From assembly GCA_947652115.1 (NCBI GenBank), contig OX393561.1:44559733-44623732 (forward strand): DNA of 64,000 nt. Reading direction: 5' to 3'. A program made the position numbers and the translations under genes. Below are positions 34,981 to 63,654 of the stretch, piece after piece (the stretch's first letter is position 1; each line of letters opens with the position of its first letter). The notes under the pieces were generated by a model. The model was not told where the DNA came from. It did no database searches and saw only the letters and a list, made by a program, of their open reading frames with translations. The stretch is from Blastomussa wellsi. Its lineage: Eukaryota > Cnidaria > Anthozoa > Scleractinia > Plerogyridae.

Positions 34981-35845
34981 TCAGTAGTTTTCTTCCTTGC
35001 ATCGTCTAAAATTTGGTTTGATGGCCTCGTTTTTGCTTTGTCCTTGGCAGATCTGCATGGCCGTGCGACAAAAGCCTTGAGTAGCTCTTCTGAATTGTAG
35101 TTCCTCCTGTAACGAGAATACAATAGCAAAGTTCAAAAATTGTTACTGGCAGCGAGTCGTCATACGCTGAAGGTAAAAATGGGGAAGGGGGGGGGGGGGA
35201 TAAATATGGAGGGGAGGGGTCAAACACAAACTAAGGCATAAAAAACGCAATTAGAAACTTTTAAAAGCCGCGGAGAAAGATGTTCACCAGCTCTGCAGCT
35301 TTCGGTTGAAAGTCTAGTTGCTAAGTAACCCGACATAATGGGATAATGACAGGTTAATGGCTTCTTTCGCTGTTCAATCCGGATCGGAAATTGGGCCTTG
35401 TATGGTACGTTAACTGTGATTTCGTAAAACAGAAATTACTTGTTTATCAATCTTTTATTTTTGGTTATTCTTTGCTCGGAGATGTCACTGAATCGTCATT
35501 GAGCCTCCCAAAAATACTAAAACAACGTTTGTTAAATCAAACGATCTCCATTGTGTTAGACAAATGAACGGATTTTAATTAATATTTTTTTGTTAGGAAC
35601 AAAGTTAACGGAAATTATGAACGATCGTATATCCTGACGATTTGAGTCGTACGTTATATTTATGATAAAAATCCGAGTCTGTGACACGACGAAGATAAAT
35701 ACGAAAATCACAAAACAAATGGCAAATGCTTTACCTGAAATATTTTAGATCTCTTTCCAATTTTACTATTTGAGTTGAAAGCCTCTGAGGAACTCAATGT
35801 ACAGTACAGCACAACAATAACAACACCAAGAAGTTTGAAGTCCAT
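34981..35845 (-). CDS. Secreted peptide precursor, family copy 1
   Basis: Two exons: 35845-35735 (37 codons) and 35106-34981 (41 aa plus stop), with GT-AG ends and a phase-0 intron of 628 nt; 78 aa. Exon 1 encodes a signal peptide (MDFKLLGVVIVVLYCTLSSS, then EAF) and ends NSKIGKRSKIFQ, placing a Gly-Lys-Arg processing site just before the intron. Exon 2 begins EELQFRRATQGF and holds a Cys-x6-Cys pair in GFCRTAMQICQGQS. It continues to a third Cys (FRRCKEENY-stop). I chose the Met at 35845 because copies 2 and 3 start there; an in-frame ATG lies 15 nt upstream. A TATA box lies about 100 bp upstream and AATAAA at 34812-34807. I do not recognise the family. A processed peptide hormone or defence peptide is inferred from layout only. 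Confidence 0.75.
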
Positions 35846-35942
35846 GGCTTGTATCTTCATAAATGTCTTTTTGGAATCCTCACGTTTTACCACTTCCAAC
35901 GTAGGTTTGCTTGCTTGTGTAAGAAATGTTTGGCCTTTCGCG

Positions 35943-35952
35943 ATATTTATAG
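35943..35952 (-). promoter_or_regulatory. TATA box of peptide gene copy 1
   Basis: CTATAAATAT on the minus strand, about 100 bp before the start codon. The same 10-mer lies at the same distance in copies 2 and 3. Confidence 0.7.
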
Positions 35953-36059
35953 AGTAATAGAGCGTTCGCTTATGAATAGAGTCCTGCATGGATGAATTTC
36001 GCAAATTGAAGGAAGTCGTTTTCCACTCACTAATTACACCTGGATTCATTGTTCTACGC

Positions 36060-39000
36060 TTAAGGGTGATTGTTAGATGCGTTAATTTTTCTACAGCAGA
36101 TGTTTAATGACTAGATATTTTCGAGTGGTGACTCATTTTCAGCTATTACCGGTATTGTAAAACGATCTAATGACGCACCAGATTCAGCGCATGAAGCCTC
36201 TTTTGTATCAGAGTCCCTAAATACACGGCAAGTTTTCTACGAAGCTAGTTTCCTTTCCGGTTTCGCTTCTGTGAAAGAAAAGACTGTATCTTAAGATATA
36301 ACTCTCAAAAAGCAACGTTGATCAACCAGGATCTGATGCTGTTGCAATAAAAAATAGCGAATCGATTATTCTTAAAAGACTTGAATAATTATCATTAATG
36401 CCTTTATGATGAACTTACGTTATTTTATTTAGTCACCTGAACGAAGCTGAATGATCTCCACTGTCAAAAATGATTAGCAAATGAAAATATAAAAATAACG
36501 ACTGCAGTCACGTTACGAAGTATATATTCTAAGGAAACACTGCAATCTTTATTTTATACGTCAAACATATCTGAAGATTAATTACATTTTTTTATTTCTT
36601 TATTTATTCAGGGGCATCCAATTAAGCAGAGGTAGTTCTCTCTCGGTGTCTTTTCTCTTAAACTGGGATAGGCTTTCAATTACTTCACGTCACTTCACAT
36701 CATATTAGCAAATAGATTTTATCTGACTACACATAAAAGAGTAAATACTTTTTGGCCAGGACATTTAAATGTAACTTATCTTGTGAGTTGAATGAAGAAA
36801 ACCCATTTGAAGAATAAAACATTAATCGTTGCAAAAATGTTCTTCAGTTCTGATCGTTATTAATGTATATTTTCCACACTTTTCTTTTCATTATATTTTC
36901 CTCTTTTTATTTTTATTTTTTTATAGCGAAACTGACTTTTTTCAACCTCGTTACAAACTCTGTACTAAAAGAGAGAATATATTATCACAATAAATTATAT
37001 TTACAAAACATCGAAGCTCAACATACGGCAGTGATTCACAGATATTTGAACATTGACTGGAAAATTTATATTGCACGGGTTTCAACGTATAACAAAAAAT
37101 TCCTGATAAATCGCAATCGATTGAACTGCACTAAACAATATTAACCTTTCACTGACGTGAATATTCATCAATAATTGTTTGCAACATTGACAGTGGCGTT
37201 TTTTCAATGGATAGATTTCTATACATCGCTGTATCCAAAAATTTATATACCGGTTTTTCCTATTTTTTCTAGGGCATTATGCGGTTTGTTATACAAACAT
37301 ATCAAAACTGGCAGATTGATGCAAAATATCTGCTACATAACTTGTCAAAGACATCTGATGCTTTATACATTGGTGTAAAATTAAAGGACTGCGGATTTCC
37401 TCTTTGATTTTTGGATTCTTTCTCGTCACAGAGTGGCGTGGAATGGAGTTAATGAGAAATGACAATCAGGAAAACTGATGCTAAGAATGAAATTGATCAT
37501 GATTTTGCTTCTAAAGAAACGAAGCCCAGCAAGTCGCTTTATATTTACATTTAACAAAAAGGCTCCTTTACTAAGTAAAAACGGTAGACTGATCCCCATG
37601 GCCCCACGGCAATGAGAAGAAATTAAAACAGAAATGAATTACAATCACAAGCAAATAAGTAGACAATATTTGCCCAAATATAGTCTACTTATTTTCATGT
37701 GATTTGATTTCTGTTTTAATTTCTTTCTACTTGCCGTGGAGATCAGTCTACCGTTTTTTACTTAAAATCTAAAGATTTTAATTGATCCAGGTTTACACAA
37801 GATCCGGCACTATTCATTGGTTTGTCGTTGTGGTCTTGCCTGTATTAGAAGATTTGTTTGCATTTTCAATAACTCTACTGATTGAAGCGAAAGGGGGTAC
37901 GGATTTATTTTGTTTCGCTCTTACGCCTGGCTATGCCATGATGATGAGGCCTAAAAGGCAGAAAAAGCTGTCCATGGCTGCCACTCCAAGGGTAATGGGC
38001 TGTGCGCATGCGTACAGGTTTTGGCCAAATCGTGGGATGTGTTGTGTGACCTTTTAATTCTATTTTGTTTCGCCAGTAGAACATACAGTATTCTCCTAAA
38101 TCTCTTTATTTATAAATTCTGTGAATTTTGCTGCGATGTAACAAAATCAAGTGACGGCAACACTAACTTAACGACTTGGTTTATTCCAATCACCTGTCTT
38201 CTTGACAAAATGTCTGCCAATTTTACAAGAAAACTTCAGAGTTCGAAGCGCACGACGTTTAGCCGACATGGCATGAAAACATTCCACCTGACGAGTTTTT
38301 GGTCAGAATAAAACCACTAACAGTTTTGTCACCGACAACAGTCCTTCTCACCCGGATGATCAAATCATCAAACTACACGATCGATATTATCTGACAATGA
38401 ATAAACCCGATCAGCTATGTAATTGCCGGTTTGCAACCAATCCCGAGAGACTCAAATGACAATAAGCGTGGTGGCCATGTTGGATTACCAAACAAAAGAG
38501 GCTAATCATCCAACATGGCGTCGATGACGTCACCTGCAAACCAAGAATATTGCCAAATGTACCACCACATTCTTAGAATAACGGTCAAAATAAATGAGTA
38601 TAGAACGGCACTAACGGAAATTAGTACTCAGGGTTAACGTTCGGGCTATAATTAGGCTTCACAAAGTTTGACTCAATTGCCTAATTTGTTTCCAGTGTTG
38701 CTCCTAGTCCGAAGAGGTCTGATCATGAGCCAGTAGAGCCACAGAGGCACTGGGCTCTAGCGAGAAGTCGAAAAATTTGGCTAATATTTAACTCTTCAAA
38801 CGTGCAAGGGGTGGAGGAGGGGGAGAGGGGAGTGGATGCCATAATACTATCATATTAATACTGTCACATTATCAATAAGTTAGAGAGAGGGGTTAAAATT
38901 AATTTTTTCCTTTTGAGAGAGGGGTGAGGCTTAATTTGAACCGTATTTTGTCAATTTCCAAGCCTCAAAGTAAATTATTGCACAGTCCCTTAATCTCTGA

Positions 39001-40187: not shown

Positions 40188-41213
40188 TCATAAATTATGG
40201 ATGCTGGCCTCGTTTTCGCTTTGTCCTTGACAGATCTGTATGGCCGTGCGACAGAAGCCTTGAGTATCTCTTCTGAATTTTAGTTCGTTCTGTAAGGAGA
40301 ATGCAATAGTAAAGCACAAAGGAGGGTATCAAGCACAAACAAAGCATGAAAACAAACTTAGAAACTTATAAGAGCCCGGAGAGAGATATTCACTAAGCTC
40401 TGCAGCTTCCGGTTGAAAGTCTATTTGCTAAGTAACCGACATGACGGGATTATTTTTTTTCATCTTTATTTAAACACGGTAAATACATTAACGCATTAAC
40501 AATTTAATATATAAAACAAACTAAAACTTATTATGAAAAATTAAAAATTATTTACACGGATTTAGCTTCTATAGTTTAAAATATGCTAACTATTAAAGAA
40601 AAGTAAACTAAATTAAAGCCTGTTTTACATAAATGCCGTGTTAGAATTAATTAACAATCGGTTCATGGACTATCTGTGCTGACGCTTTTCTTTCACTAGT
40701 CAAAGAGGAGCGGAAATTGGGCCGAGTATGGTGCGTTATCTGTGTTTAAAAATTACTTGTTATATTAATCTTACATTTTTTGGTTATTTTTTTACGCGAA
40801 GATGTCACTGAGTCATCCTTTAGCCTCCCAAAAGTTGGTTAAATCAAGCTACCTCCATTGTGTTTGAGCTGAGGAACGGTTTTTAGTTTTTTGCGAGTAA
40901 ACAATTTAACCGAATTTATGAAACTGAGATCGTATATCCTGATGAGCTCGATGTACGGGTAAACGTTTTAAAATCGGAATAAGTAAAGTATACTATAATG
41001 GAAGTAAACTAGAGTCGTTATACTGATTATAAAAATCCGAGTCTAGGACACACCAAACATACATACCTCAAAAGACCACAAAACAAATGGCAAAGGCTTT
41101 ACCTGAAGCATTTTAGACCTCTTTCCAACTTTTTTATTTGAGTTGAAAGCCTCTGAGGAACTCAATGTACAGCACAGCACAACAATAACAACACCAAGAA
41201 GTTTGAAGTCCAT
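40188..41213 (-). CDS. Secreted peptide precursor, family copy 2
   Basis: Exons 41213-41103 (37 codons) and 40289-40188 (33 aa plus stop) with an 813-nt phase-0 intron; 70 aa. Exon 1 is nearly the same as in copy 1 (MDFKLLGVVIVVLCCTLSSS, EAFNSNKKVGKRSKMLQ). Exon 2 reads NELKFRRDTQGFCRTAIQIC, then QGQSENEASIHNL and stop. It keeps the Cys-x6-Cys pair but lacks the C-terminal third of copies 1 and 3, because a deletion brings the stop forward. TATA box at 41325-41316 and AATAAA at 40046-40041 are conserved. Differences from copy 1 in exon 2 include both silent and conservative changes, which fits a functional gene. Confidence 0.72.
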
Positions 41214-41315
41214 GGCTTGTATCGTTATAATTGTCGTCTTTTTCGAATCTTTTTACGTTTCACCACTTCTAACGGAGGTTTGCTTGCTTGTGTAAGAAAT
41301 GCTTGGCCTTTCGCC

Positions 41316-43896: not shown

Positions 43897-43902
43897 TGGA
43901 TT

Positions 43903-45306: not shown

Positions 45307-47590
45307 TTATCGTCTGAAATTTGGTTTGCTGCCCTTGTCTTCACTTTGTCCTTGGCAGATTTGCATGGCGGTGCGACAAAAGCCTTGAGTATCTCTTATG
45401 AATTGTAGATCGTCCTGAAACGACAATACAATTATGAAGCTGAAAGATTGTTACAGCGTCATCTAAACTATATATGAATTTCTGATCAAATTTTGCTCCG
45501 AAAAGAATGTAGGGCGATTATGATATGCAAATAAAAACTTAATTTAAATAAAAGCAGATCTTGAAAAGAGAGTTACGAGGTCAACCTCTGTAAACAAGTC
45601 GCTTAAAGAATATAATTAAGATTAAAAATAAGATAACAAATAGCAATAATAACAGAATTAAAGTCTGAAAGGGGAAGGCTATCGGCTTCTACCAAGTCTC
45701 TAGGTAATAGACCTTTTTAGCTTCGTTTGTTTGTTGCCCCATTTCAGATCACGTGATGATACCCGTGAGACTTATTGCTTTCAAATTCAAACAAATCCAC
45801 GCTGAAATGAATGAATAATTTCCAAATGGACAAAGGAGTAATTCTCGGGAGAGCATCACATGATCTGAAATGGGCAATTTACATACGTAGCTAAAAAGGT
45901 CTATTCTTTCCAAAGTCTAATTCTGGCAGGATTGACATAAAGTTTAATTTGCAAGAATGATAAGTCCCCGTCGACTGCGAATTTGATAAAAATATTCAAA
46001 TTTCAACATAATAGCCAAAAAGTACGCTACAACACTCCACTGAAGATACAGTAAGATGATACTGCGCATGCCTGCGTTTTTGAAGTGACCAAGTTCGGCT
46101 TATTATGTTAGCCAGCCCAGTGCACGTGAAGTTTTCACAGGTTTAAGGAAAATAATCTTTTAAAGAATGTTCTAAAGGCTCAAAAGACATTATTATAATC
46201 TGCGACTTTCACCAGAAGTTTGCTTTGTAAACGATATCACCGGTTGATGACAGATTGATGATAGGTCTGTGCTGAAGCCTTTTCCTTTTGTATTCAGTAC
46301 GAAGCGAAAACTGGGCATAGTCTCGGCATCGTCTTACATTTTTTGTTAAATATTGATAACTGAGAGGCTTATGGTACTTTGCGAAACGAAACGAAACGAA
46401 ACGAAACGAAATGGTACTTTGCGAAATGGTACTTTGCGAAATGGTACTTTGCGAAATGGTACTTTGCGAAATGGTACTTTTCACAAATAAAAAGTGCAGA
46501 AGATCTTTTATAACACCCGAAAGATTCAAGTACCTCTATAGTTGTCTTATGTGGGGTCCGATCCGTATTGTCCATAGTGTCTGAAGTCCAGTCCAAAGGC
46601 CTGTTCAATTTTTCCAGTGACCACGCAAAACAAGATGGCAGCCAACGCACTCTCACTCTGAACGTAGCGTAACAGGGAGCAGAGTGTTGCTTCTGGTGAA
46701 TAAGCCTACCTATGAGAAGCGGGCCACCGCTGAGAGGTCAAATTTCGCGGAAATATCCGAGGCCTTCGCGATCGAAATCGGAAGGAGAGAGCGCCATGAA
46801 CGATCGATCGAAGCCATGCTGCCGGTGACAACACGAGTGAAGGATGAGAGAACACGCCAACGGGTTAGCAGAAGTTATTATTCGCAAAGTACCGTTTCGC
46901 AAAGTACCGTTTCGCAAAGTACCGTTTCGCAAAGTACCATTTCGCAAAGTACCATTTCGCAAAGTACCATTTCGCAAAGTACCATTTCGCAAAGTACCAT
47001 TTCGCAAAGTACCATTTCGTTTCGTTTCGTTTCGTTTCGCAAAGTACCATAAGCCTAACTGAGAAACTTCTGACAAAATCCTTTTACTAATACTAGGCAG
47101 CGAGATTAACTTACCGCCAGGTATTGTTTATGCAATTTTGACTATCCTCAGAGTTTTCAACTGCCCCGCAAGAAAACCTTTTTCGGAGATGCGACTTAGA
47201 TGTTAAGGCTCCAAAAATAAATAAATAAATAAATAAAAGCTTGATACGTCGAATGACCTCCAGTATGTGTTGATTGATAAAGGGTTTTACGTTATTACAA
47301 GCGGAATTGAGAGCAACAAAGTTAGCCAAGTTTATGAACAATCCTGATGTTTTAATGAAAGGAATTGGAAGTAGACTAGAATAGTTTGACAGCAATTTTT
47401 TATGCTAGCTCGCTTATGATCAAAATCACTCTGTGATACAACGTAGATACAAATACAAAGGAAATGACAACTATTTTACCTGTAATATTTTAGATCTCTT
47501 TCCAATTTGGTTATTATAATGTATAGCCTCTGAGGAACTTAAGATGCAGCACAGTACGACAATAACAACAGCAACAAACTTGAGTTTCAT
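45307..47590 (-). CDS. Secreted peptide precursor, family copy 3
   Basis: Exons 47590-47480 (37 codons) and 45414-45307 (35 aa plus stop); intron 2065 nt, phase 0; 72 aa. Exon 1 encodes MKLKFVAVVIVVLCCILSSS, then EAIHYNNQIGKRSKILQ. Exon 2 reads DDLQFIRDTQGFCRTAMQIC, then QGQSEDKGSKPNFRR and stop. The signal peptide core, SSEA, GKRSK and the GFCRTAxQICQGQS block are the most conserved parts. The intron is longer than in copies 1 and 2, partly because a MITE (45706-45905) and a foldback element (46366-47055) lie in it. The C-terminus ends at Arg-Arg, where copy 1 continues with a Cys tail. AATAAA at 44910-44905 is conserved but now sits beyond an inserted MITE. Confidence 0.74.
45706..45905. 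repeat. MITE in the intron of peptide copy 3
   Basis: Termini AATAGACCTTTTTAGCT and AGCTAAAAAGGTCTATT are perfect inverted repeats. A subterminal pair CATTTCAGATCA / TGATCTGAAATG follows. 200 bp, no ORF. Confidence 0.85.
46366..47055. mobile_element. Foldback element with 15-bp subrepeats in both arms and 9-bp target duplication
   Basis: The ends are GGCTTATGGTACTTTGCG and CGCAAAGTACCATAAGCC. Each arm has a run of AAACG pentamers and then a tandem array of the 15-mer AAATGGTACTTTGCG: about five units on the left, about ten in inverse orientation on the right. The 9-bp TAACTGAGA stands immediately on both sides (46357-46365, 47056-47064). The central part (46481-46870) is unique sequence with no recognised gene. 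Arms made of short subrepeats with a 9-bp duplication are the form of Foldback/Mutator-type elements. Frames that read through the arms are artefacts of the repeat. Confidence 0.88.
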
Positions 47591-47699: not shown

Positions 47700-50301
47700 C
47701 TTATGAAAAGAGACGTGACTGAATTTTGTAAATAGAAGGAAGTACTTTTCCACCCTCTATAATTAATTGCGTCTAGATAAGTTGTCCTATGCCTAAAGGT
47801 AATTGTTAAAATAAATCCGTTGATTTGACTAGAGCAGATGTTTTTAATGACTTTGAAAAGACGAGATATTTTGAGTGGTAACTCATTTTCGGTTATTGCC
47901 GGTATTGTGAAAGGGGTGAAACAATTCATTAGGCAAGACGCCGATACTTCAGCACAAGAAGTAACATATTCCTTGAATACAAGATTTCTTCGAAGCTTCG
48001 TTTTCAGTATCTTTTTTGAAAAAAAAAAGCCTGGATCAGTTTGACCAGGATGCTAATGGTGTAACAATAAACATTAGCGAGTCGAGGCTTAAAAGGCTTC
48101 AATAATTATCATTAGTAGAAACTCAGCTGTGTTCTATTTAAAATGCTTGAATCTGATTGGTTCTCCCACTGTTTTCTATTCACCGATAGAAAACGATCGC
48201 GCGCGTGTTGCTGTTTGAAGGCAAGATTTTTCTTGATTTTTCGCTTAAAAATACATAAAATGGTAGCTTTTGGAATGCAATCCTTTAGAGTTTCTATTAA
48301 AACAATTAGACTACTCGCCCTCGTTTCTATGAGCGATGGTCAAATCGGCTGCGGCTCGTTGACTATTCGCTCATAGTAAACTCGGGCTCGTAGTCTGTTA
48401 ATTAACGTTCAGTCATGATGATCTTAAGCCATTTAATTTACAATAGTCACCTGATCATGAGCGAAGCTGAAAGATCATCACATTTATAGAAAAATGTAAA
48501 AAAAATAGAAAAATAAGCAAACATTGTAATCTTTATCTCTGTTTATTTTGTTTGTATGGCTGACGTTTCCCTCGCTGTGCTTTCAATTACTTTGCCGCAT
48601 ATTTGCAGATAGTAAATATCTGGTGTGGCATAGTCTAAAAATAATTTTCTTTGTTTCCCTAATATATCGTAACTTTTCTTGGAAGTTGTAAAATCGAGCC
48701 CGTTTGAAGAATAAAACGTCTATCTTTACAAAAATGTTACTGTCATCATTGCATGTTAACGTATATTTTCGACATTTGTGTTTTGATCGAAAACGTTTTT
48801 CTGTGTCAAAAATTCCAAGAGCGTTAAATGGACTGTTTCCAGTGTCAGGCTCAACTGTTAATTTAAAGTAAAGTAGCGAAGACCGAAACAATAAATTATA
48901 TTTACAAAACATCGATGCACAGCATACAGGGATAATTCACAAATAATCGGACGTTAACTCTTGCACTTTAATTACGGTTTTTAACCCATAACAAATTAAA
49001 ACCCATAACAAATTAAAAGCAAAAAAGCGATTGAACTCAACAAAATTTCACTGTCCACATGGATATAAATCATTGAATTCATTGGTGTTTTTTATTGGAT
49101 GTAGAATCGAATTTCTGTACATCGCTTTTAAACTAGACGAATCCAATATTTAAGCAATAGACCACACTTTCTATGGGTTTATAGGGGTAATAACCCACGC
49201 GGGATGTTTGGGAGAACACTCGAAAAGTTTGTAAGACGCGCGATTTTTCCGTGGGTTTACCGGCACAATAAACCATAGCTGATTGACCAATCAGAGCACG
49301 CGCATTTATTTTGTTATTATATAAATATACATATGCTAGATTTCATTTGTTCAATATGTGGTTTGTAACCCATAAAAACTAAAAATGGCGGATCGATGTG
49401 AAATGTCTGCTAAATTAAAGCCCCGCAGTTTTCCTCTTTGTCTCTTGGGACGACCCACACCATAGAGTGGTATATAATTAAATTCTAAGGCGATATAGTG
49501 TTAATGAGAAATGACAAACTGATGCTAAGACGGTGAAAGTAATCCTGATTTAACTTGTAAACAAACGACGCCTTGGTCGACCTTGGTCTTTTGATATTTA
49601 CATTTAACAAAAACGGCCAGTTTTTCAATAGCTCTGCTGATTGATCCAGAGATCCAGGGATTAGTTTGTTGCGTCAGTAGAAGAGTCAGTCGTGAAACGT
49701 TGATTTTCCTAACACGTTATAAAATTTTCTGTGAATATTTGCTACAATTAATGAACAAAATCAAGAAGCTAACTCAACGATTTAGTTTATTTTTTGCCAG
49801 GTCAAAGATGGCTCAAAGCGCAACACGTTTAGCCGTCATTATATGAAAATATTCCACCCGAAAAGTGTCTGTAAGTAGAGAAAAACTTCAACATTTTACA
49901 ATTTCACCTTATTGTCGAGCGTGATCTTGCAATCTTTAAACAAACTTGGTGGCGCTCAAAATAGTTTTGTAATTTAACAGGCCAAAGATGGTACTAGGAA
50001 TCACGCCACGTTTCCGGGCACCGAAAGCCGGAGCAGTTTGCGACTAATTGACCGAGGGAACTTTTAACGGACACTTCCGTTTTCTCTTTGGAGACGTTTT
50101 CCATGTCCATTAGAAATATAATGCCTTTTATCCAGAAATAATGAAGGGTTCAATTATCCACTTTTTTCGCTATATTGATATTAATTACAACTAGCTTCTG
50201 TTTTAACCATGGGCGTATACAGCTATTGTTGAGAAATAGTTTGTTTGAAAATACTTTAATGAAAGCATACCTGGAGTATCAACACATGGCAGTATCAGTT
50301 T
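47700..50301. other. Upstream duplicated flank of peptide copy 3
   Basis: No gene is supported. It parallels 36.1-38.3 kb in order and sequence at low similarity. A stretch near 49190-49310 with GGGTTTATAGGGGTAATAAC and GTGGGTTTACCGGCACAATA looks like an interspersed repeat. Confidence 0.5.
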
Positions 50302-50470: not shown

Positions 50471-51193
50471 ATGGAGAAAGCAGAGCTGATTGAAATTTTG
50501 GCGAAGTCTCAAGAGAAGATTTTGAGTTGCGTTGATTCTAAATTGCAAGATCTCAAGAGAAGCATTTCTGAAGACCAGGAAGACTGTGTTCGGTCTGTTG
50601 TGAAAAAAGTAAAAGAAGATCAGTCGATTAGTTGGAAAAAAGTCGGCAACGAAAAGCAGTTTAAGTTTAACGACTCCTTGGAAACCAAACTCGATTCGGC
50701 CATTGCTGCCATTGACAAGAAGAAGCTGGATAAAGCCAGGCAGGAGTTACAGGAAGGTAAGAAACTTTTGGCTGAGCGGCAGAAATTGATTAAGCTTGCC
50801 GATCGATCAGAGTGTGGTTGGGCTACTGTTTCAGCGTATTTGGCCGATGATTTAGCAGATACTCCGGACGATGAGCGGCGTATTTCCAAGGCTGAAAAAT
50901 CCGCTAAGAAGGCTTGGGACGCCAAGAAAGAGAAATCGCGGTCCAGATCTACGGGGTTTAAGTCCAATTACTCTGCTCCCAGTAATGATTATTTGCATTT
51001 GCGTTCCTCTACTGACAGTTCTTTGCAGTCCTTTCAGAAGCCCTTTCAGTTTCGGCAGGCCAACTTTATCCCAGGGGTTTTCAGAAGAAGAAATCAAGCC
51101 GGAGTTTGCTTTGCGTGTGGATTGGAAGGACACTGGAGAAGAAGCTGCCCCAACGTCAGGTCCTTCACACGATCAGATAAGTTTAGCAAGTGA
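50471..51193 (+). CDS. Gag-like ORF1 with CCHC zinc knuckle (Ngaro/PAT-like element)
   Basis: 240 aa from the ATG at 50471, directly after the A1 repeat. The N-terminal half is charged and helical, with many Lys, Glu and Gln, and probably forms coiled coils for multimerisation (about residues 5-130). A Ser/Arg/Lys-rich stretch (about 140-165) follows. Near the C-terminus CFACGLEGHWRRSC is a C-x2-C-x4-H-x4-C zinc knuckle, the nucleic-acid-binding motif of Gag nucleocapsid. The next ORF overlaps its 3' part in another frame, so the polymerase is probably made by frameshifting or re-initiation. In the DIRS element at 1-5.7 kb the gag lacks this knuckle. Confidence 0.85.
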   Translation: MEKAELIEILAKSQEKILSCVDSKLQDLKRSISEDQEDCVRSVVKKVKEDQSISWKKVGNEKQFKFNDSLETKLDSAIAAIDKKKLDKARQELQEGKKLLAERQKLIKLADRSECGWATVSAYLADDLADTPDDERRISKAEKSAKKAWDAKKEKSRSRSTGFKSNYSAPSNDYLHLRSSTDSSLQSFQKPFQFRQANFIPGVFRRRNQAGVCFACGLEGHWRRSCPNVRSFTRSDKFSK

Positions 51194-53126
51194 TGCATTT
51201 GAATTTGAGAGCTCTTCTGAATCTACTTTATTTAACGTTGGCTCTCTCAAATCTCACGTTGATTTTTGGTCGAATTCTGTTCAGGCTTCGGATTTCATCA
51301 TCAGTACCATTGTTGATGGGTACAGAATTCCTTTTTTCGATTTGCCGGCAAGTTATGCTATTCCTAATCGATCTTCTGCTTTTAAGTTTAAGGATTTTGT
51401 CAATGAAGCCATTTCTGAATTAATTGAGCGTGGATGTGTTATGGAAGTTGACATTCCGCCCGTGTTCATTAATCCGTTACACGTTGTACAGCAGTCCAGT
51501 GGGAAATGCAGGCTTATTTTGGATCTGTCGTATTTAAACAAGTTCGTTTGGAAGCAGTCGGTTCGTTATGAAGATGTTCGTACTGTGTTTGATTTATTTC
51601 ACTCGGGTTATTTTTTCTTCACTTTCGATCTCAAATCCGGTTATCATCACGTTGAAATATTTCCTGATCATCGGCAATATCTCGGTTTTTCTTGGCGGTT
51701 TGATTTTGGTGTCAAATATTTTGTTTTTTCGGTTTTGCCTTTTGGCTTGTCGTCAGCCCCTTATATTTTTACCAAGTTAGTGCGGGCGCTTGTTGGCTAC
51801 TGGCGGGGTCTTGGTCGTCGTGTCGTTATGTTTCTTGATGACGGTATTGGCGGCGCTCCTGATTTCATCGCTTGTCAGGAAGTTAGTCGTCTTTGTCGTG
51901 TCGATTTGGAAAAGGCAGGTTTCTTTGTAAACGACCAAAAATCTGTGTGGATTCCAGCTCAGGTTGGTGTTTGGCTGGGTTTTTGTTTGGATTTTAGTCG
52001 TTGTCTCATTTCCATGCCGAGTGCTAAAATTATGAAGCTTAAGGAGAGCATTTCGCGCATTCTTTCGCAACGTTTTGTAACGGCCAAGGAACTTGCCAGC
52101 GTTGCTGGTCAGCTTATTTCTATGTTTTTGGCTATTGGCAACACTGCGCGTTTGATGTCTCGATCAATGTATTCCCAGATTTCGGAGCAAGTATCTTGGT
52201 TTTGCCCTTTTACTCTTCATGACTCGGTCAAGAGCGAGTTAGTGTTTTGGCTTTCAAATTTGGATCAGCACAATGGGCGTCCTATTTGGTTCAAGTCCAG
52301 TACAGTAAGGATTGCTTACTCGGATGCGAGTGACACTGGTTATGGCGGCTACATTGTTGAACTTGGTCCTCAGGTGGCCGCGCAAGGTGTTTGGTCTTCG
52401 GACATGGCGAATCAAAGCTCAACGTTGCGTGAGATTTTAGCTGTTCGTAAAGTTTTAGAATCTTTTGCCGCTAAGTTGGCGGGGTTGTGTGTTAAATGGT
52501 TCACCGATAATCAGAATGTTGCCCGTATAATTGACATCGGTAGTCCAAAATTGCATTTACAAGAAGAAGCCAGGCGCATTTTTCATATTTGTGTTTCTCA
52601 CGGTATTTCAATTGAGCCCGAATGGGTACCTAGGGCCAGTAATGAGCAAGCTGACTATTTGAGTCGTATTGTTGACCCTGACGATTGGTCTGTTAGTCTG
52701 CCCATTTTCCAGCTTTTGAATTCTAGATGGGGGCCCCACACTGTTGATCGTTTTGCTGATGAACATAACTGTTTATTGCCCAGATTTGATTCCAGGTTTT
52801 GGAATCCTCTTTGTGAAGCCATGGATACTTTTACAAGATCGTGGGAGTTCGAGAACAACTGGCTTTGCCCGCCGCCTCATTTGGTTGTGAGAGCGCTCAG
52901 GCACATGAGATCATGTTGTGCAGAAGGGACTTTGATTACTCCTTTATGGCGATCCGCTCCATTCTGGCCTCTTCTTACTTCCGACGGTCTACATTTTGCA
53001 TCTTTTGTGGTGGACTGGATGGATCTTCCTCCTTTGAAGTCGACGTTCTGTCCCGGTCGTCACAGTCATGGTTTTTTTTTTTGGCAGGGAAGATCTTCAC
53101 TTCAGAGTTTTGGCAGTTCGCATTAA
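50871..53126 (+). CDS. Reverse transcriptase/RNase H polyprotein (Ngaro/PAT-like element)
   Basis: The frame is open for 751 codons; its first about 100 overlap gag and the real start is probably near the gag stop or by frameshift. Reverse transcriptase motifs in order: CRLILDLSYLNKFV, FTFDLKSGYHHVEI with the first Asp, LPFGLSSAPYIF, and VVMFLDDGIGG with the catalytic Asp pair. RNase H motifs are IAYSDASDTGYGG, STLREILAVRKVL and VKWFTDNQNVARI, with SNEQADYLSR at its end. The C-terminal region (TVDRFADEHNCLLPRF, NWLCPPPHLV, SAPFWPLL) is shared with DIRS/Ngaro polyproteins. After a run of 11 T (53071-53081) the usual ending (HFRVLAVRINF) is in another frame that stays open to 53214. The frame given here therefore ends early, most likely through a one-base slip. 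Confidence 0.88.
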   Translation: MSGVFPRLKNPLRRLGTPRKRNRGPDLRGLSPITLLPVMIICICVPLLTVLCSPFRSPFSFGRPTLSQGFSEEEIKPEFALRVDWKDTGEEAAPTSGPSHDQISLASDAFEFESSSESTLFNVGSLKSHVDFWSNSVQASDFIISTIVDGYRIPFFDLPASYAIPNRSSAFKFKDFVNEAISELIERGCVMEVDIPPVFINPLHVVQQSSGKCRLILDLSYLNKFVWKQSVRYEDVRTVFDLFHSGYFFFTFDLKSGYHHVEIFPDHRQYLGFSWRFDFGVKYFVFSVLPFGLSSAPYIFTKLVRALVGYWRGLGRRVVMFLDDGIGGAPDFIACQEVSRLCRVDLEKAGFFVNDQKSVWIPAQVGVWLGFCLDFSRCLISMPSAKIMKLKESISRILSQRFVTAKELASVAGQLISMFLAIGNTARLMSRSMYSQISEQVSWFCPFTLHDSVKSELVFWLSNLDQHNGRPIWFKSSTVRIAYSDASDTGYGGYIVELGPQVAAQGVWSSDMANQSSTLREILAVRKVLESFAAKLAGLCVKWFTDNQNVARIIDIGSPKLHLQEEARRIFHICVSHGISIEPEWVPRASNEQADYLSRIVDPDDWSVSLPIFQLLNSRWGPHTVDRFADEHNCLLPRFDSRFWNPLCEAMDTFTRSWEFENNWLCPPPHLVVRALRHMRSCCAEGTLITPLWRSAPFWPLLTSDGLHFASFVVDWMDLPPLKSTFCPGRHSHGFFFWQGRSSLQSFGSSH

Positions 53127-53214
53127 TTTCAGATCCGCTCGCTTTTTCAATGCTGGCTTTTGCACCAGTGATCTTGGCTCGTGTGCGAAATGTGGCTCTG
53201 TTCGTGTTTGGTAA
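53071..53214 (+). pseudogene. Out-of-frame C-terminus of the RT/RNase H protein
   Basis: Downstream of the T11 run, the frame one base away reads EDLHFRVLAVRINF and stays open to TAA at 53212-53214. This is the ending expected from related elements, so the T run probably gained one base, or the assembly did. Confidence 0.6.
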
Positions 53215-53280
53215 GTAGTTTCATAGTTATGGGGTATAATCTAGGTGACCTTTTGTTCGGGGGTATTTTTATTTAGTCTA

Positions 53281-53650
53281 TAGCCAGTGGGTGGCTGTTG
53301 AATAGTAAGGCCAGTGGGTGGCTGTTGATTAATAAGGCCAGTGGGTGGCTGTTGATTAATAAGGCCGGTGGGTGGCCGTTGATTATAACGCCAGTGGGTG
53401 GCTGTTGAATAATAAGGCCAGTGGGTGGCTGTTGATTAATAAGGCCAGTGGGTGGCCGTTGATTATAAGGCCAGTGTGTGGCGGTTGAATAATAAGGCCA
53501 GTGGGTGGCTGTTGATTAATAAGGCCAGTGGTGGCTGTTGATTTTAAGGCTAGTGGGAGGTTTTTTGATTAATGGGGCCAGTGTGTGGCTGTTGATTTAT
53601 GAGGTCAGTGGGTGGCCTTTGATTTATGAGGTCAGTGGGTGGCTCTTAGT
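53281..53650 (+). repeat. Minisatellite inside the Ngaro/PAT-like element
   Basis: About thirteen copies of a 27-28 bp unit beginning GGCCAGTGGGTGGCTGTTGA, with variants. Later units are diverged and single relatives appear near 53715 and 53770. It lies between the polymerase ORF and repeat B1. Confidence 0.92.
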
Positions 53651-53912
53651 TTAGTTTATGGGTAGTCTTCGCTCTTCGTGTAGTTGAAAGATCAGGGAGT
53701 CGCTTTGAATTCTTTTTAGCCAGTGGGTGCTTATGTTATTAGTCTGTTGTTAGCCTTTATCGCCTGTTCTTAGCCTTTGGGTGGTTTAACTGTAGTTTAT
53801 TCTTTGCTTATATCGATCTTTCGTTCTGATTTTACCTTTTGCTTGTTGTTTTGTTCCTTTACTGTTCGCTAGATTTCGATTCCCGTTCTCGGGCTCTCGT
53901 GTGTATCTACAT

Positions 53913-54003
53913 GCTGGTCTCGAAGCGAGCAGCACCCAAGTTAGGCTTGTGTGTTTCTTTTTGGGGGACGGGGGGTTTTGGCGTTCTATGATTTAGAGGA
54001 GAG
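53913..54003 (+). repeat. Split direct repeat B1
   Basis: 91 bp from GCTGGTCTCGAAGCGAGC to TTTAGAGGAGAG, matching 55439-55529 with one visible mismatch (GGCTTGTG against GGCTGGTG). It adjoins A2. Confidence 0.9.
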
Positions 54004-54169
54004 TAGTATTTTCCTGCGTTTGACAGCGGAATTAGCAGGAAAATATGCTCTCATCGTTATCTTTGTTTGTTGTGCGTTGGTATGTGGGGTATTTTGGCGG
54101 GTGTATATATATTAGCCGTGAAAGAGTGGGTCTTTCATCTCGGTCTCGCTTTCCGGCGTTCGTGTTTTG
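54004..54169 (+). repeat. Split direct repeat A2
   Basis: Second copy of the 166-bp A1. It carries the same TATA-like stretch (about 54102-54114), 140-150 bp before the recombinase ATG. It could thus drive a separate recombinase transcript. Confidence 0.9.
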
Positions 54170-54252
54170 TTTTTATTGTATCATATATTTTTGTTGCCGT
54201 GTGTCCTTTTGTTTTCCTCTTTTTTCTTTTTGTAGATGTTTTTAAGTCCGCC

Positions 54253-55239
54253 ATGTGGTCGAACCTTCAGGCCGCGGTTCCTCGGGACGACTTTGAGTTA
54301 AGATTGTTAGCCGATTCGCTTCCTGATGTGGCTTTGGCGGGAAGAGCTTCCAGTACTGCTACCAAGTATTCCGCGACCTATGCCAGATGGAAGCGTTGGG
54401 CGCGCGATCAGGGCTTGCCAGCATTTCCTGCGTCTCCTTATCACTTCGCTCTCTATTTGCGTCACTTGATGGCGGAAGCTAGGACCGCTGCTCCCATAGA
54501 GTCTGCCATTCATGCCATTGCCTGGGTGCACCATTTGGCTGGGGAGAGATCGCCTTCAGAGCACCCGTTGGTGAAGGATGTTCTTGCTGGTGCTCAGCGT
54601 CTTTTGGCCCACCATACGTGCAAGAAGGAACCTATTACCGTTGCTTAATTGGAGCAATTAGTTAACTCTAAAGCCCTGTCGATGGCTTCGTTATATGACA
54701 TTCGTTCTGTTTTAATTTGTCTGCTGGCCTTTGCAGCTTTTCTTAGATTTGATGAGCTTGCGAAATTAGTTCGCTCAGATGTTGAAATCGATAGTGAGAA
54801 GTTACAGTTGTTCATTGAGTCTAGTAAAACCGATAAATACAGGGACGGTGCATGGGTTGTTGTAGCTGTTACAGGGAAAGTTACCTGTCCTGTTAACATG
54901 ATGAATCGGTATCTCGATAAGGCTCAGCTTAGTCACGACAGTCCTCTTTTTTGCCAGTTAACTAGAACCAAATATGGCTACAAGGCTAGAGCTAGAGGTC
55001 TTAGTTACACTAGGCTAAGAGAATTAGTAATTGAGGTTTTTAGAGGCATTGTTCCTGATTTAGCGCGTTTTGGAACTCACAGTCTTAGGAGTGGCGGAGC
55101 TACTGCTGCAGCTAATGCCGGTGTTCCGGATCGTCTCTTTTTACGTCACGGTCGCTGGTCTAGTGCTTCCGCCAAAGATGGCTATGTCAAAGATTCTCTC
55201 GCTTCTCGTTTGTCTGTTTCTAAGGCTTTAGGCATTTAG
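54253..55239 (+). pseudogene. Tyrosine recombinase of the Ngaro/PAT-like element, interrupted by one stop
   Basis: Starting at ATG 54253 the frame encodes 131 aa of SAM-like core-binding domain ([29 protein letters not shown]) and reaches TAA at 54646-54648 just after KKEPITVA. The same frame continues without change to 55239 ([12 protein letters not shown] onward). The catalytic part is complete: Arg in [10 protein letters not shown], Lys in [10 protein letters not shown], His-x-x-Arg in [13 protein letters not shown], and Tyr in DGYVKDS. A single nonsense codon thus separates two otherwise good halves. Read-through or a sequencing error would restore function; as written it is broken. A pyrimidine tract and TTTTTGTAG at about 54205-54236 before the start look like a splice acceptor. 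Confidence 0.82.
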
Positions 55240-55433: not shown

Positions 55434-55438
55434 CGAAC

Positions 55439-59547: not shown

Positions 59548-59556
59548 TATATAAAG
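59548..59556 (+). promoter_or_regulatory. TATA box of peptide gene copy 4
   Basis: TATATAAAG about 95-100 bp before the start codon at 59651, the same spacing as in the minus-strand copies. Confidence 0.65.
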
Positions 59557-59650
59557 GTGGATGGAACATCGTTGACTCTACCGCTCGGCTACTTGAAGGA
59601 AAGGTGCACATCTATCTCCTGCTAGAGATTCCACGATTTGTAAAATAATT

Positions 59651-60532
59651 ATGGCAACTTCAAGATGTATATCTACCGTGTTTTGTATTCTTCTACTGTG
59701 GTCGTTTCTCTTGTCTTCAGAAGCGTTTTTTGGTAACAAAGTTGGTAAAAGATCTGTTAAGGTAATTTGTGACACTGAGTAATTTAGTGAGTTTGAATTT
59801 TAATTAGCTTGTCACTGTTTGCCCTCCTCTTCTGAATAATGTAAAATTCACCAGTATCGTTTAACCTCATCGAGTTTCAAAAATCGCTAACACACAGCCG
59901 GCAGAATTTAAAATTTCTTATTAATATCCGCTAATAATTTGGCTTTCAAAATGTTAAACAACGAAAGATTTTATTTTTTTTCAATAGCCCAAGTTCGGTA
60001 TATCACTATTCGAACATGACTTGGAGGCACAGTTCTGGTTAAAAATGCTCTCTTCCCTGTTAATTCTTAATTGAAAGGAAATAAAAGCCAAAATAAAAGT
60101 TTAACCATAAAGCCTCGGCCATGTTTGAGCGTAGGCTATAAATTCTTTATTTTCCTTACTGTCAACAAAAAGATTTATCAGGCCAAACAGATACTTGATA
60201 GACTCGAGACGAAACGTAAAACGGCGAATATTATCAACTAATTCCATTTTGTGCTTCATTCCCTTTTTGAACATATAATGAAAAATTCGTCGTCGGTTTT
60301 TACCCCATTTTAATTCATTCAATTTTTTTTACTTGTATAAAAATTTTCTATCATGCAACTGTAATAATGCGAGTACATTTTTTATAACTTGCAGTTTCAA
60401 AGAACTCTTCAAGATGTTTGCCTATTTGCGCTCGAAAACTGTGACGACTTTGATTCCCAACAGAGGTCACGTGATGCAGAAATGACCAACGAGAGGCCAC
60501 AACGGAGGGAAATCAAACATTTTCATCAATGA
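59651..60532 (+). CDS. Secreted peptide precursor, family copy 4
   Basis: Exons 59651-59761 (37 codons) and 60395-60532 (45 aa plus stop) with a 633-nt phase-0 GT-AG intron; 82 aa. Exon 1 encodes a signal peptide (MATSRCISTVFCILLLWSFL, LSSEAF) and ends FGNKVGKRSVK, so the Gly-Lys-Arg site and intron sit exactly as in copies 1-3. Exon 2 begins FQRTLQDVCLFALENC with a Cys-x6-Cys pair at the same distance from the intron. It continues DDFDSQQRSRDAEM and ends EIKHFHQ. Outside exon layout and Cys spacing the sequence differs much from copies 1-3, so this is a second subfamily on the opposite strand. A candidate AATAAA is at about 60767. Confidence 0.72.
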
Positions 60533-61991
60533 ATGTTGTGTTTGATCACATTGGCATTGGCTTTAGGAGATCATTTTCAAAGCTTATCAAAGTTACGGAG
60601 ATATTTGGTTTGAACGCAGGTTTTGAGTTTTGATAAAATCATGAACTTGAAATTATCAGAACTGACTTATGAGGATTAAGCGAATGTTATGCATTAAAGA
60701 CAAGAAAGTAACATTTTTTATTTAAACAGAGATACTCCATCAGCCTTATAATTAATACTGATATCAATAAACTGAGACCCTTAAATAAGCTGACAGTATA
60801 CCAAATGTTAAGAAGATTAAAACTTATAAAAAATAAAAGATTTAAGCTAAAATTACATATGTATAAAAAGTACAGAACATTAAAGCTTCCTGAAAGAAGA
60901 AAAGTTGAAAGAGTTTCTTCTCTTAATTGAAAATGGGTTATCGTGTTATGTGATAGGAAAAAGTCGATAACCAATAAGAAGGCCAGAATAAGGTTTTTAA
61001 CTGTTAAAAGTTAACGGAAAAAGGTTTCAGTAAGAATTTCAAAATTTATTTTTCATTGTCGAACTGCGAACAATTCGAATCAATTCTGCAATCAATTATT
61101 AAACTTGATACCCAGAACATACAAGGCCGAGGTTTGTTTTATTAGCTGATACGAAAGCCTGAGGCTAATAACTTACAATTAGAGTGATTTTCTTGAATCC
61201 GCGAAACAACTTCTAACAAGTCATGCCAAATAGCCAAAACTAACCAAAGAAAACAATGGAATTAGTTTTTATTTTAATTTATTTTAATTAATTAATTTAT
61301 TTTAATTCATTAATTTATTTTAATTCATGGTTGGCGCAAAACCAATCAACCGAAATCTCCAAAGTTGAAATTCTTTCATTAGGTTTCAGAGTCACCTTTA
61401 ATTTATGAAAAAATAACATAACTCCGAAACCTATTGACATAATTTTTATGAAATTGCAGAAATGTTCCTTTCGTAGACCTAACAAAAATAGTTATGTAAA
61501 AAACAAAAACTTTCATCGAGTAGTATTTAAGTTATTAGCCCGAAAATGTCAAATATAGAGCATCTTTGACTTCTTTTGACGTTGCCATGGCAACGGAGAA
61601 AAGAAAAATCTACACACGTCTATTCGAAAAGTATGACTTCAGTGTTATCGGTGTTGCTGCAATAGAATTCAAAAGACAGTGATGTGTAAACCATTGTAAG
61701 CCACCTTTCAAACACTTACCGGGTCGCCACCAAACCCAAAGCTACTTAAAACACCAAAAGGATCGCTCCTTGGCTATTCCATGCTAATATAATTTGGTTT
61801 TATCAACTGGGTTGACAATGTGAATTGGCCACCGTAAAGAGATTCAAGAGCTGACGTTTCGAGCGTTAGCCCTTCGTCGGAGCGAATCCGACGAAGGGCT
61901 AACGCTCGAAACGTCAGCAGTCTTGAATCTCTTTACAGTGGCCAATTGACATTATCAACCCAGTTGATAAAACCAAATTATATTGTTATAC

Positions 61992-62036
<45 letters not shown>

Positions 62037-63137
62037 CTATTCCACGCTAAGTTACGTCCTACAACAGCTGTCCATGGTACAATTTCATGGGTATTTGCCG
62101 TTACGTAGATATGTGATGTGTTCTTTTTTTAATGATTTATTTTCAAAGTGAATTAATTGAATTTTATGTTTTGCACAAAACGTGTCGAACAACGGAAAAA
62201 ATGAAGATTTTTCTGAATTTATTTTCTTTGCGGAACTCAGTACTGTACACCCACTCATGTTCTTACATAAACCGGAAAAAAGTACACCAGCTAAAGAGAA
62301 CTTCTGGCTCGAACACATCGTACTCAAAGACATCGTAAAGAAAAAATGATAATAATTATTCCGTTCACTTATCAACCTAAAGGGAAAATCGATCTTTCCC
62401 TGCCCAGAGGTTACACGTTTTCAATTGAAAAATGGAATTTGTGCCACTGGTTTACTACCATGGATATCTTCTTTTTTGCTGAATCCACAAATTTTCAAAT
62501 AATTACGTTTTTGTAGCACCTTTACTCTAGCTTGTGGATATAGACTCACTTTGCTAAATGTCAGTGACTATTCCTATTCACAGCCGTAGAGTACGCAATT
62601 TCTTCCTAAAGCTAGCTTCCTTAATTTTAATTCAAAGCCTAATATCGAAACATACCTGTGTCAACATACCTTATACGTATCGCTAAAGCAAGCCTTGACA
62701 ATTGTCCAATAGTAATGCTCATTAATACGGTCTAGATTAGCTCTAAATTGATCCAAAACAAATTTTCATGGACAAAATACTGATCGAATTTCACTATATT
62801 GAACTTGATGCTAAAATACAAATTTAGCGCGCACGTGAGTAGTTTGATGGAAACACTTGTGAAAGTCACGCGCCACAGCGAGAAACGGAAACAGCTGTTG
62901 AAATAGTTGCCGTGGGCTCGTGTTTCAACAGCTTTTCCTTTCTTCGCGACGTGGAAGGTCCATCTTGTATAAGGCAAATAACTGCATAGCTCTCGACCAA
63001 TCAGGACGCGAGAATTTTGACAGTTATCGCAAAACGATGAACTAATGGTTGGTGAATCATTTACTTTATCGTTTAGCAAGATGAAAGCAATACTTCCACC
63101 TACCTTGCAGTAGTACTGTTCCGCGTTTGGAAGAGGT
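60533..63137. other. Intergenic between peptide copies 4 and 5
   Basis: No gene is supported. It contains a TTTTAATTAATT-rich stretch near 61270-61330 and the palindrome at 61786-61985. The frame at 62732-63163 on the minus strand overlaps exon 1 of copy 5 and has no domain. Confidence 0.5.
61786..61985. repeat. 200-bp near-perfect palindrome
   Basis: Left arm AATATAATTTGGTTTTATCA onward through CGTTTCGAGCGTTAGCCC is mirrored by the right arm with only a few differences. The centre is CGTCGGAGCGAATCCGACG. The core GAAGGGCTAACGCTCGAAACG is, from memory, a common interspersed sequence in cnidarian and other animal genomes. Confidence 0.88.
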
Positions 63138-63654
63138 ATGGCGGATGCAAGATTAATGTCCACCGTGTTTTGTATTCTTTTTATGTTTTATTGGTTCGTG
63201 CATACAGAAGCATTTAATTCTAATAATCGTGTTGGTAAAAGAACTGTTAAGGTAAATATTTGATGTTGAGTATTTTACCCATAAGTGAGTTTGAATGTCA
63301 GACGCGTAGGCTAGTGGTACTGGGCCTTTAAAACAATAAACGAAGGAGATGAAAAGCTTCTCTAACGCGAAACATCGACAAATTTTGTTCTGAAATTAAT
63401 GTAAGAATTTATTATAACTACCTAAAAGGAATAGACGGTTAGGAAAAAAAAGAAAACGCAAAATTGAACAAGAGAAGCCCTTCGTTATACAATTTTTATT
63501 ATTTTTGCTTTATTAATCGTAGATCCAAAGAACCATTATAGACACTGGTAAATCTGCGCCCGACATGCCCGAACAGAGTATGGAATTTGATTCCCAGCGA
63601 AAGTCACGTGACGCGGACCAGTCCAGTTCAACTCCGAACAAGAGGAACATTTAA
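63138..63654 (+). CDS. Secreted peptide precursor, family copy 5 (cysteines lost)
   Basis: Exons 63138-63251 (38 codons) and 63523-63654 (43 aa plus stop); intron 271 nt, phase 0; 81 aa. The signal peptide (MADARLMSTVFCILFMFYWF, VHTEAF) and NNRVGKRTVK correspond to copy 4. Exon 2 begins IQRTIIDTG and shares EFDSQRKSRDAD with the FDSQQRSRDAE of copy 4. The Cys-x6-Cys block is replaced by a Cys-free segment (GKSAPDMPEQSM). Either this copy makes a linear peptide or it is losing function. The frame and splice sites are still intact, which argues for some constraint. No clear TATA box is seen. Confidence 0.65.

What the first reader, a model, noticed from the sequence alone, without database searches (positions are those of the whole stretch)
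34981..63654. Unrecognised five-member family of small secreted peptide precursor genes
Seen: five two-exon genes, each with a signal peptide, then Gly-Lys-Arg-(Ser/Thr), then a phase-0 intron within four codons, then a 33-45 aa exon 2. Three are on the minus strand, two on the plus. Established: a signal peptide plus a dibasic site is the layout of processed peptide hormones and defence peptides. Inference: a lineage-specific expanded peptide family, perhaps neuropeptides or antimicrobial/venom-type peptides.
Basis: partly seen in the sequence, partly recalled or inferred. Interest (0 to 1): 0.88.

Follow-up and report, generated by a model that had tools for sequence, protein, structure and literature searches.

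The report
Coral amidated neuropeptide gene cluster
What is likely a stony coral genome carries a tight cluster of six related two-exon genes that likely make short amidated signalling peptides cut from just behind the predicted signal peptide, a layout reported for sea anemone neuropeptides whose counterparts a published survey could not find in stony corals.

Summary
Five two-exon genes lie at the stated places with GT-AG, phase-0 introns. A mechanical scan of the window finds exactly these five (Markov controls: mean 0.03). A sixth copy lies 5.7 kb past the window edge; protein searches of the 368 Mb genome with three members found no other copy with this layout. Oculina patagonica, a stony coral, has two annotated homologues with consecutive locus tags, aligned end to end (80% and 74%).

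I read it differently: in all eight members a 6-7 residue peptide sits between the predicted signal-peptide cleavage site (Glu-Ala) and an invariant Gly-Lys-Arg, the classic amidation and cleavage signal: FNSNSKI, FNSNKKV, IHYNNQI, FFGNKV (twice), FNSNNRV, FNSNNRI, FFGQQI. Layout and (K/R/Q)(I/V)-amide ending resemble sea anemone Antho-RIamides (FYRI/FYRV/FYKI), whose counterparts Koch and Grimmelikhuijzen (2020) could not find in stony corals. The tetrapeptide itself is absent, so I claim that it works like Antho-RIamide, not membership.

Against: within each subfamily the short peptide, Gly-Lys-Arg aside, is the least conserved segment, and exon 2 keeps a C-x6-C in seven of eight, so an exon-2 product is a live rival. 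No transcript or peptide data.

The parts
35735..35845 (-). Copy A exon 1: signal peptide, FNSNSKI-GKR, SKIFQ
   Evidence: donor CAG|GTAAAG; TATA box 106 bases before the ATG used
34981..35106 (-). Copy A exon 2 (41 aa, C-x6-C plus a third Cys)
   Evidence: acceptor TTACAG; similar to P0001, 70% over 55% of the precursor, E=9e-9
41103..41213 (-). Copy B exon 1: signal peptide, FNSNKKV-GKR
   Evidence: TATA box at -111
40188..40289 (-). Copy B exon 2 (33 aa, C-x6-C, shortened end)
47480..47590 (-). Copy C exon 1: signal peptide, IHYNNQI-GKR
   Evidence: TATA box at -92
45307..45414 (-). Copy C exon 2 (35 aa, C-x6-C), after a 2,065-base intron holding a tandem repeat
59651..59761 (+). Copy D exon 1: signal peptide, FFGNKV-GKR (same peptide as Oculina P0002)
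   Evidence: TATA-like site at -103
60395..60532 (+). Copy D exon 2 (45 aa, C-x6-C)
63138..63251 (+). Copy E exon 1: signal peptide, FNSNNRV-GKR
63523..63654 (+). Copy E exon 2 (43 aa, no cysteine; recognised by likeness to D only)

Best explanation
Five clustered two-exon genes in this window (six counting one just outside) encode small predicted prohormones from which one 6-7 residue peptide, lying between the predicted signal-peptide cleavage site and an invariant Gly-Lys-Arg, would likely be released and C-terminally amidated to act as a coral neuropeptide resembling sea anemone Antho-RIamide. Proposed steps: (1) signal peptidase cuts after Glu-Ala, exposing Phe (Ile in copy C); (2) a prohormone convertase cuts after Lys-Arg, a carboxypeptidase removes Lys-Arg, and the Gly is turned into the C-terminal amide, giving FFGNKVamide, FNSNNRIamide, FNSNSKIamide and so on; (3) the N-terminal Phe may be converted to phenyllactyl, as in sea anemones; (4) the peptide acts on a neuropeptide receptor, plausibly to modulate muscle and polyp expansion; (5) exon 2 is left over as a spacer or as a second, disulfide-ring peptide. 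Shown: the gene models as open frames with splice sites, the homology, the invariant Glu-Ala and Gly-Lys-Arg, and the selection pattern. Inferred: steps 1-5, and that the host is a stony coral.
For: Exactly 5 hits in the window against a mean of 0.03 in 30 controls. Two Oculina patagonica proteins with consecutive locus tags match copy D over the full 82 aa (E=8e-37 and 2e-33); one carries the identical FFGNKV-GKR. Across eight exon-1 sequences the only invariant columns are Met, two signal-peptide positions, Glu-Ala and Gly-Lys-Arg. Selection in exon 1: D/F pS 0.63, pN 0.25 (p=0.001); E/F 0.68, 0.27 (p<0.001); A/C p=0.011; B/C p=0.027. In E/F the peptide plus Gly-Lys-Arg has 1 nonsynonymous change in 23.7 sites against 21 in 58.3 in the signal peptide (p=0.002; one pair, picked after looking). 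TATA boxes or TATA-like sites lie 92-111 bases before the ATG in A-D. The same genome encodes Antho-RWamide-2 in the same layout, signal peptide | QGLRW-GR. Sea anemone precursors with FYRIGKR-type peptides directly after the signal sequence are published (PMC7523074 section 7).
Against: No transcript or peptide data. Without the Gly-Lys-Arg, the short peptide is the least conserved segment within both subfamilies: A-C 38% (signal peptide 79%, exon 2 62%); D, E, F and Oculina 46% (63%, 50%). In D/F its nonsynonymous rate (0.30) is not below that of the signal peptide (0.23), the opposite of E/F. Exon-1 pairs A/B and D/E show no purifying signal. The C-x6-C of exon 2 is conserved in 7 of 8 complete members and in P0001. 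None of the peptides has the anemone FY(R/K)(I/V) tetrapeptide, and the anemone precursors could not be compared because supplements were not available. The cleavage site is read by rule, not predicted with a trained tool. The amidating enzyme was not confirmed in this genome (all six requests unanswered).
Confidence: 0.62

Rival explanations
1. The active product is the exon-2 peptide, a roughly 20-residue disulfide ring (C-x6-C) cut out at basic residues; the N-terminal piece is only a propeptide and Gly-Lys-Arg is the propeptide cleavage site.
For: C-x6-C kept in A, B, C, D, F and both Oculina proteins and in P0001, where QGFCRTAMQICQGQ is identical to copies A and C. Within both subfamilies exon 2 is more conserved than the short peptide without its Gly-Lys-Arg (62% against 38%; 50% against 46%).
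Against: Copy E has no cysteine in exon 2 yet keeps FNSNNRV-GKR. Between the two subfamilies exon 2 is the least conserved part (22%, against 42% for the peptide alone and 59% with Gly-Lys-Arg; 15 pairs). The Gly before Lys-Arg is invariant in 8 of 8, and a plain propeptide site would not need it.
Confidence: 0.23
2. Antimicrobial or venom-type peptides released from exon 2.
For: Signal peptide plus dibasic site; divergent exon 2; tandem expansion.
Against: Exon 2 net charge +3, 0, +1, -2, 0, -4 and 3, 2, 2, 2, 0, 2 cysteines for A-F; no Pfam family at curated cut-off for A, D or E (the three scanned); no relative of A among solved structures at E up to 1.
Confidence: 0.05
3. Some copies, E above all and perhaps B, are decaying duplicates with no product, and only D- and A-type genes work (this can be true together with the best explanation).
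For: E lost the ring cysteines and its exon 2 is not recognised by the exon-2 profile; B has a shortened exon 2; D/E exon 1 gives a nonsynonymous/synonymous ratio near 1 and A/B shows 1 synonymous against 6 nonsynonymous changes.
Against: All six reading frames and splice sites are intact; E/F exon 1 shows constraint (p<0.001), with 1 nonsynonymous change in 23.7 sites of the peptide plus Gly-Lys-Arg.
Confidence: 0.2

Closest known systems
Antho-RIamide family of sea anemones (FYRI/FYRV/FYKI; family 8 of Koch and Grimmelikhuijzen 2020, PMC7523074)
   Same: One peptide copy directly after the signal sequence; N-terminal Phe (7 of 8 here); (K/R)(I/V) before Gly-Lys-Arg in 6 of 8 (Q-I in the other two).
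   Different: 6-7 residues instead of 4; no Tyr at position 2; a six-gene cluster against one precursor per anemone species reported. Described from Actiniaria; corresponding peptides were not found in Scleractinia by that survey (sections 7 and 9).
Antho-RWamide single-copy precursors (family 10 of the same paper)
   Same: Single amidated peptide directly after the signal sequence, often several genes per species; an Antho-RWamide-2 gene is present in this genome.
   Different: pQ...RWamide peptide; Gly-Arg rather than Gly-Lys-Arg in the gene found here; no likeness in the rest of the precursor seen by eye (not aligned).
Hydra PKVamide (Hym-176) precursors (PMC8638164, passages)
   Same: One or two peptides per precursor, KVamide ending; one Hydra peptide ends in SNKVamide (pQSPSNKVamide).
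   Different: Reported only in Hydra; pQ start or Pro-rich; the likeness is 3-4 residues and may be chance.

Membership tests
Antho-RIamide (family 8) | Single peptide copy directly after the signal sequence, followed by Gly and basic residues | tested here: met
   8 of 8 members by sequence; the cleavage site is read from the sequence by rule
Antho-RIamide (family 8) | N-terminal Phe (source of phenyllactyl) | tested here: met
   7 of 8 (Ile in copy C)
Antho-RIamide (family 8) | Tetrapeptide FY(R/K)(I/V) | tested here: not met
   0 of 8 members. In the whole genome a pattern covering FY(R/K and some others)(I/V)GKR gives 5 hits (reversed-pattern control 18); all 5 read, none directly after a signal-peptide-like start in the same frame
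Antho-RIamide (family 8) | Sequence homology of the rest of the precursor to anemone precursors | not testable with these tools
   Additional file 8 of PMC7523074 is a supplement; no supplement look-ups were allowed
Antho-RIamide (family 8) | Phenyllactyl N-terminus and neuronal location | not testable with these tools
   Needs mass spectrometry and expression data
Antho-RWamide (family 10) | C-terminal RWamide | tested here: not met
   0 of 8 members
Antho-RNamide (family 7) | FLRN directly after a signal sequence | tested here: not met
   0 of 8 members. Genome pattern: 20 matches (control 32); the 15 of 20 with loci were read, none directly after a signal-peptide-like start
Antho-KAamide (family 9) | FFKA directly after a signal sequence | tested here: not met
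   0 of 8 members; the rest of the genome was not searched for it
Cysteine-rich toxin or cationic antimicrobial peptide | Many cysteines (six or more, recalled criterion) or strong positive charge in the mature part | tested here: not met
   0-3 cysteines, net charge -4 to +3 in A-F

The most novel reading that the evidence does not exclude
Stony corals did not lack the Antho-RIamide system: they carry it as a lengthened, tandemly multiplied form, phenyllactyl-(x)n-(K/R/Q)(I/V)-amide, made from a precursor that also releases a conserved C-x6-C ring peptide, so that one gene yields two signals.
Probability: 0.28. Interest if true: 0.75.

Novelty: new variant of a known kind. Interest (0 to 1): 0.6.

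Why it matters
A published survey of hexacoral neuropeptides lists single-copy RWamides but no phenyllactyl-type peptides for stony corals (PMC7523074, section 9). Its script asked for at least three processing sites with similar peptides, and its other searches used known peptides or precursors as queries (section 13), so a one-copy peptide of new sequence could be missed. This cluster gives named peptides (FFGNKVamide, FNSNNRIamide, FNSNSKIamide and others) that can be synthesised, looked for by mass spectrometry, and tested on coral polyps and receptors. [quoted passage not shown]

Tried and rejected
Chance or artefact: rejected by the Markov control, by full-length annotated homologues in another genus and by the selection pattern.

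Dispersed genome family: not seen. Protein searches of the whole genome with A, D and F gave 6, 6 and 12 matches; 6, 6 and 5 of these are exons of copies A-F, all on contig C1 within about 36 kb. The other 7 matches (E 0.2 to 2) were read: none has the Gly-Lys-Arg layout; one is a 184-aa frame with a hydrophobic start but no Gly-Lys-Arg, and six are copies of one repeated frame. The tool scores only its best candidates, so diverged members could be missed.

A true FYRI-type or FLRN-type gene elsewhere in the genome: not found (5 of 5 and 15 of 20 matches read; a signal peptide coded in a separate upstream exon would be missed). One search read minus-strand matches in the wrong orientation; read those correctly.

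A degraded copy near 56911 (weak exon-1 profile match, E=0.05): no DNA similarity to copy D there, so not counted. No relatives of copy A confirmed in viral contigs (4 pattern matches, none confirmed). Amidating enzyme (PF03712) in the genome: six requests, never answered, so that step rests on established knowledge. A stricter pattern for QG(L/I)RW-GKR gave no match; the looser one, allowing Gly-Arg, gave the single RWamide gene (control 3). No structure was predicted: I judged the peptides too short to inform.

Selection tests not computable: most comparisons between the A-C and D-E groups are saturated. The E/F exon-2 alignment is poor, so its p=0.004 is not used. The A-C exon-2 tests use the first 27 codons.

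Papers without a result: text finds in PMC6756747 and PMC9545775 for such peptide endings gave 0 places; passages of PMC12225738 name no such peptide.
Full report
WHAT IS THERE. Five two-exon genes were confirmed at the stated coordinates: A (-) 35845-35735 / 35106-34981; B (-) 41213-41103 / 40289-40188; C (-) 47590-47480 / 45414-45307; D (+) 59651-59761 / 60395-60532; E (+) 63138-63251 / 63523-63654. All introns are GT-AG and phase 0 (628, 813, 2065, 633 and 271 bases). A mechanical scan of both strands for a signal-peptide-like start, 3-9 residues, then Gly and two basic residues finds exactly these five; 30 Markov controls average 0.03, maximum 1. Exon-1 and exon-2 profiles find no further convincing copy in the window; the exon-2 profile does not recognise exon 2 of E (E-value 6), whose likeness is to D only. 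Copy A has further in-frame ATGs upstream, so its start is chosen by likeness to B.

A SIXTH COPY. The window is G000:C1:44559733-44623732 of a 368 Mb genome. A search with D finds a sixth gene, F, 5.7 kb past the window edge (exon 1 44629444-44629560, exon 2 44630110-44630247). Exon 1 reads MTTKQPLISAVFCILLLSSVFLLSEA-FNSNNRI-GKR-AFK and exon 2 NKRAVQDLCQFAFEHCGDSEPLRRSRDADTDYAWLNTREDEHFHQ. Searches with A, D and F gave 6, 6 and 12 matches; 6, 6 and 5 are exons of this one cluster, and the other 7 were read and lack the layout. The 5,000 bases after the window end, up to 44628732, read N.

RELATIVES. Searching copy D against 5.8 billion proteins gives two hits, both from Oculina patagonica (Scleractinia): ACROYT_G011309 (80%) and ACROYT_G011310 (74%), each 82 aa and aligned end to end, with consecutive locus tags. 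So the same joined protein is independently annotated in another coral. Searching copy A gives one hit, P0001 (54 aa, from a 2.8 kb JGI contig of no named organism), which shares QEELQ and QGFCRTAMQICQGQ with exon 2.

WHERE THE PEPTIDE IS. Aligning eight exon-1 sequences (A-F, two Oculina) leaves these invariant columns: the start Met, two signal-peptide residues, Glu-Ala, and Gly-Lys-Arg. Glu-Ala, with Ser or Thr before it, fits a signal-peptidase site (small residues at -3 and -1; established rule, read by eye). What remains between the two invariant blocks is FNSNSKI, FNSNKKV, IHYNNQI, FFGNKV, FNSNNRV, FNSNNRI, FFGNKV and FFGQQI: 7 of 8 begin with Phe, 8 of 8 end in Ile or Val, and 6 of 8 have Lys or Arg before that (Gln in the other two). 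Gly-Lys-Arg is the standard signal for prohormone-convertase cleavage and C-terminal amidation, so the expected product is the upstream peptide as an amide.

SELECTION. Exon 1, Nei-Gojobori proportions: A/C pS 0.40, pN 0.17 (p=0.011); B/C 0.44, 0.18 (p=0.027); D/F 0.63, 0.25 (p=0.001); E/F 0.68, 0.27 (p<0.001); A/B 1 synonymous against 6 nonsynonymous changes; D/E ratio 1.09 (p=0.8). So 4 of the 6 within-subfamily pairs show purifying selection; the pairs are not independent. Exon 2: B/C p=0.04, D/F p=0.02, A/C p=0.38, D/E p=0.17; A/B pS 0.13, pN 0.09, not tested. In E/F the peptide plus Gly-Lys-Arg has 1 nonsynonymous change in 23.7 sites, the signal peptide 21 in 58.3 (p=0.002); in D/F the order is reversed (0.30 against 0.23). 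Between the two subfamilies (15 pairs) identity is 59% for peptide plus Gly-Lys-Arg (42% for the peptide alone), 34% for the signal peptide and 22% for exon 2. Against my reading, within both subfamilies the peptide alone is the least conserved part: A-C 38% (79% and 62%), D/E/F/Oculina 46% (63% and 50%).

EXON 2. Net charge is +3, 0, +1, -2, 0, -4 and cysteines number 3, 2, 2, 2, 0, 2 for A-F. Two cysteines six residues apart are kept in 7 of the 8 complete members and in P0001; E has lost them. A second, ring-shaped peptide is therefore possible but not kept in E. The charge and cysteine counts argue against a cationic antimicrobial or a cysteine-rich toxin.

PROMOTERS. A TATA box or TATA-like site lies 92-111 bases before the ATG in A-D (E: -170) and TATAAAA lies upstream of F. 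A, B and C share CTCTATAAATAT.

COMPARISON WITH WHAT IS KNOWN. Koch and Grimmelikhuijzen 2020 (PMC7523074; abstract, sections 7, 8, 9, 11 and 13 and passages of others read) describe sea anemone precursors with one peptide directly after the signal sequence: FYRI, FYRV or FYKI (Antho-RIamide), FLRN and FFKA types, whose Phe becomes phenyllactyl, and LRWamides. [quoted passage not shown] Their script required at least three processing sites with similar peptides, and other searches used known peptides or precursors as queries (section 13), so a one-copy peptide of new sequence could be missed. As a positive control, this genome encodes the published Antho-RWamide-2 peptide in the same layout (MEAKHLVIFFLVSCVFFSICLQPTSS | QGLRW-GR). 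No FYRI-type gene with a signal peptide was found. The family thus has the position, Phe start and (K/R)(I/V)-amide end of Antho-RIamide but not its tetrapeptide. I claim that it works like it, not that it is a member. Hydra's PKVamide family includes pQSPSNKVamide (PMC8638164, passages), a short resemblance that may be chance. In Nematostella, FYRVamide weakly activates the FLRNamide receptor R197 (PMC11087051, passages).

NOT IN PRINT, AS FAR AS SEARCHED. Library searches for Antho-RIamide/phenyllactyl/FYRVamide, for KVamide, NKVamide, QQIamide, SKIamide and NRVamide, and for stony-coral neuropeptide precursors list no paper that, from titles, abstract starts and the passages read, reports these peptides. 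Subscription journals and supplements were not searched.

VERDICT. A real, conserved, tightly clustered gene family in what is likely a stony coral, most likely precursors of short amidated neuropeptides of the single-copy, signal-peptide-adjacent kind; a new variant of a known kind. Transcription, processing, the phenyllactyl step and function are inferred.

Noticed in passing
window 32510-32746 (+): A 78-aa open frame with a signal-peptide-like start ends in KVKR-CRFQFCQF-GR-stop, as expected for an amidated C-x4-C ring peptide. It is the only frame of that kind found in the window (0 in 60 Markov controls), gives one match in the genome (itself), and found no homologues in the protein search. 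It could be a second, unrelated peptide hormone gene.
   Followed up: partly
L022 (G000:C2:28935256): An Antho-RWamide-2 precursor gene (signal peptide | QGLRW-GR) in the same genome, with Gly-Arg rather than Gly-Lys-Arg.
   Followed up: yes
window 50471-55239 (+) and 1521-5595 (-): Two retroelement-like regions: the plus one has zinc knuckle, reverse transcriptase and tyrosine-recombinase (phage integrase) matches, as in DIRS elements (recalled). The minus one looks similar by eye and was not scanned.
   Followed up: partly
window 46365-46480 and 46886-47056: A 15-base tandem repeat (GGTACTTTGCGAAAT-like) in inverted copies, inside the long intron of copy C.
   Followed up: no
window 36325-37560 and 48044-49613: Patchy similarity between the regions upstream of copies A and C, well beyond the genes, consistent with segmental duplication.
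   Followed up: no
window 31213-31298 (-): tRNA match in Rfam (59 bits); ARAGORN reports it with an unclear anticodon.
   Followed up: no
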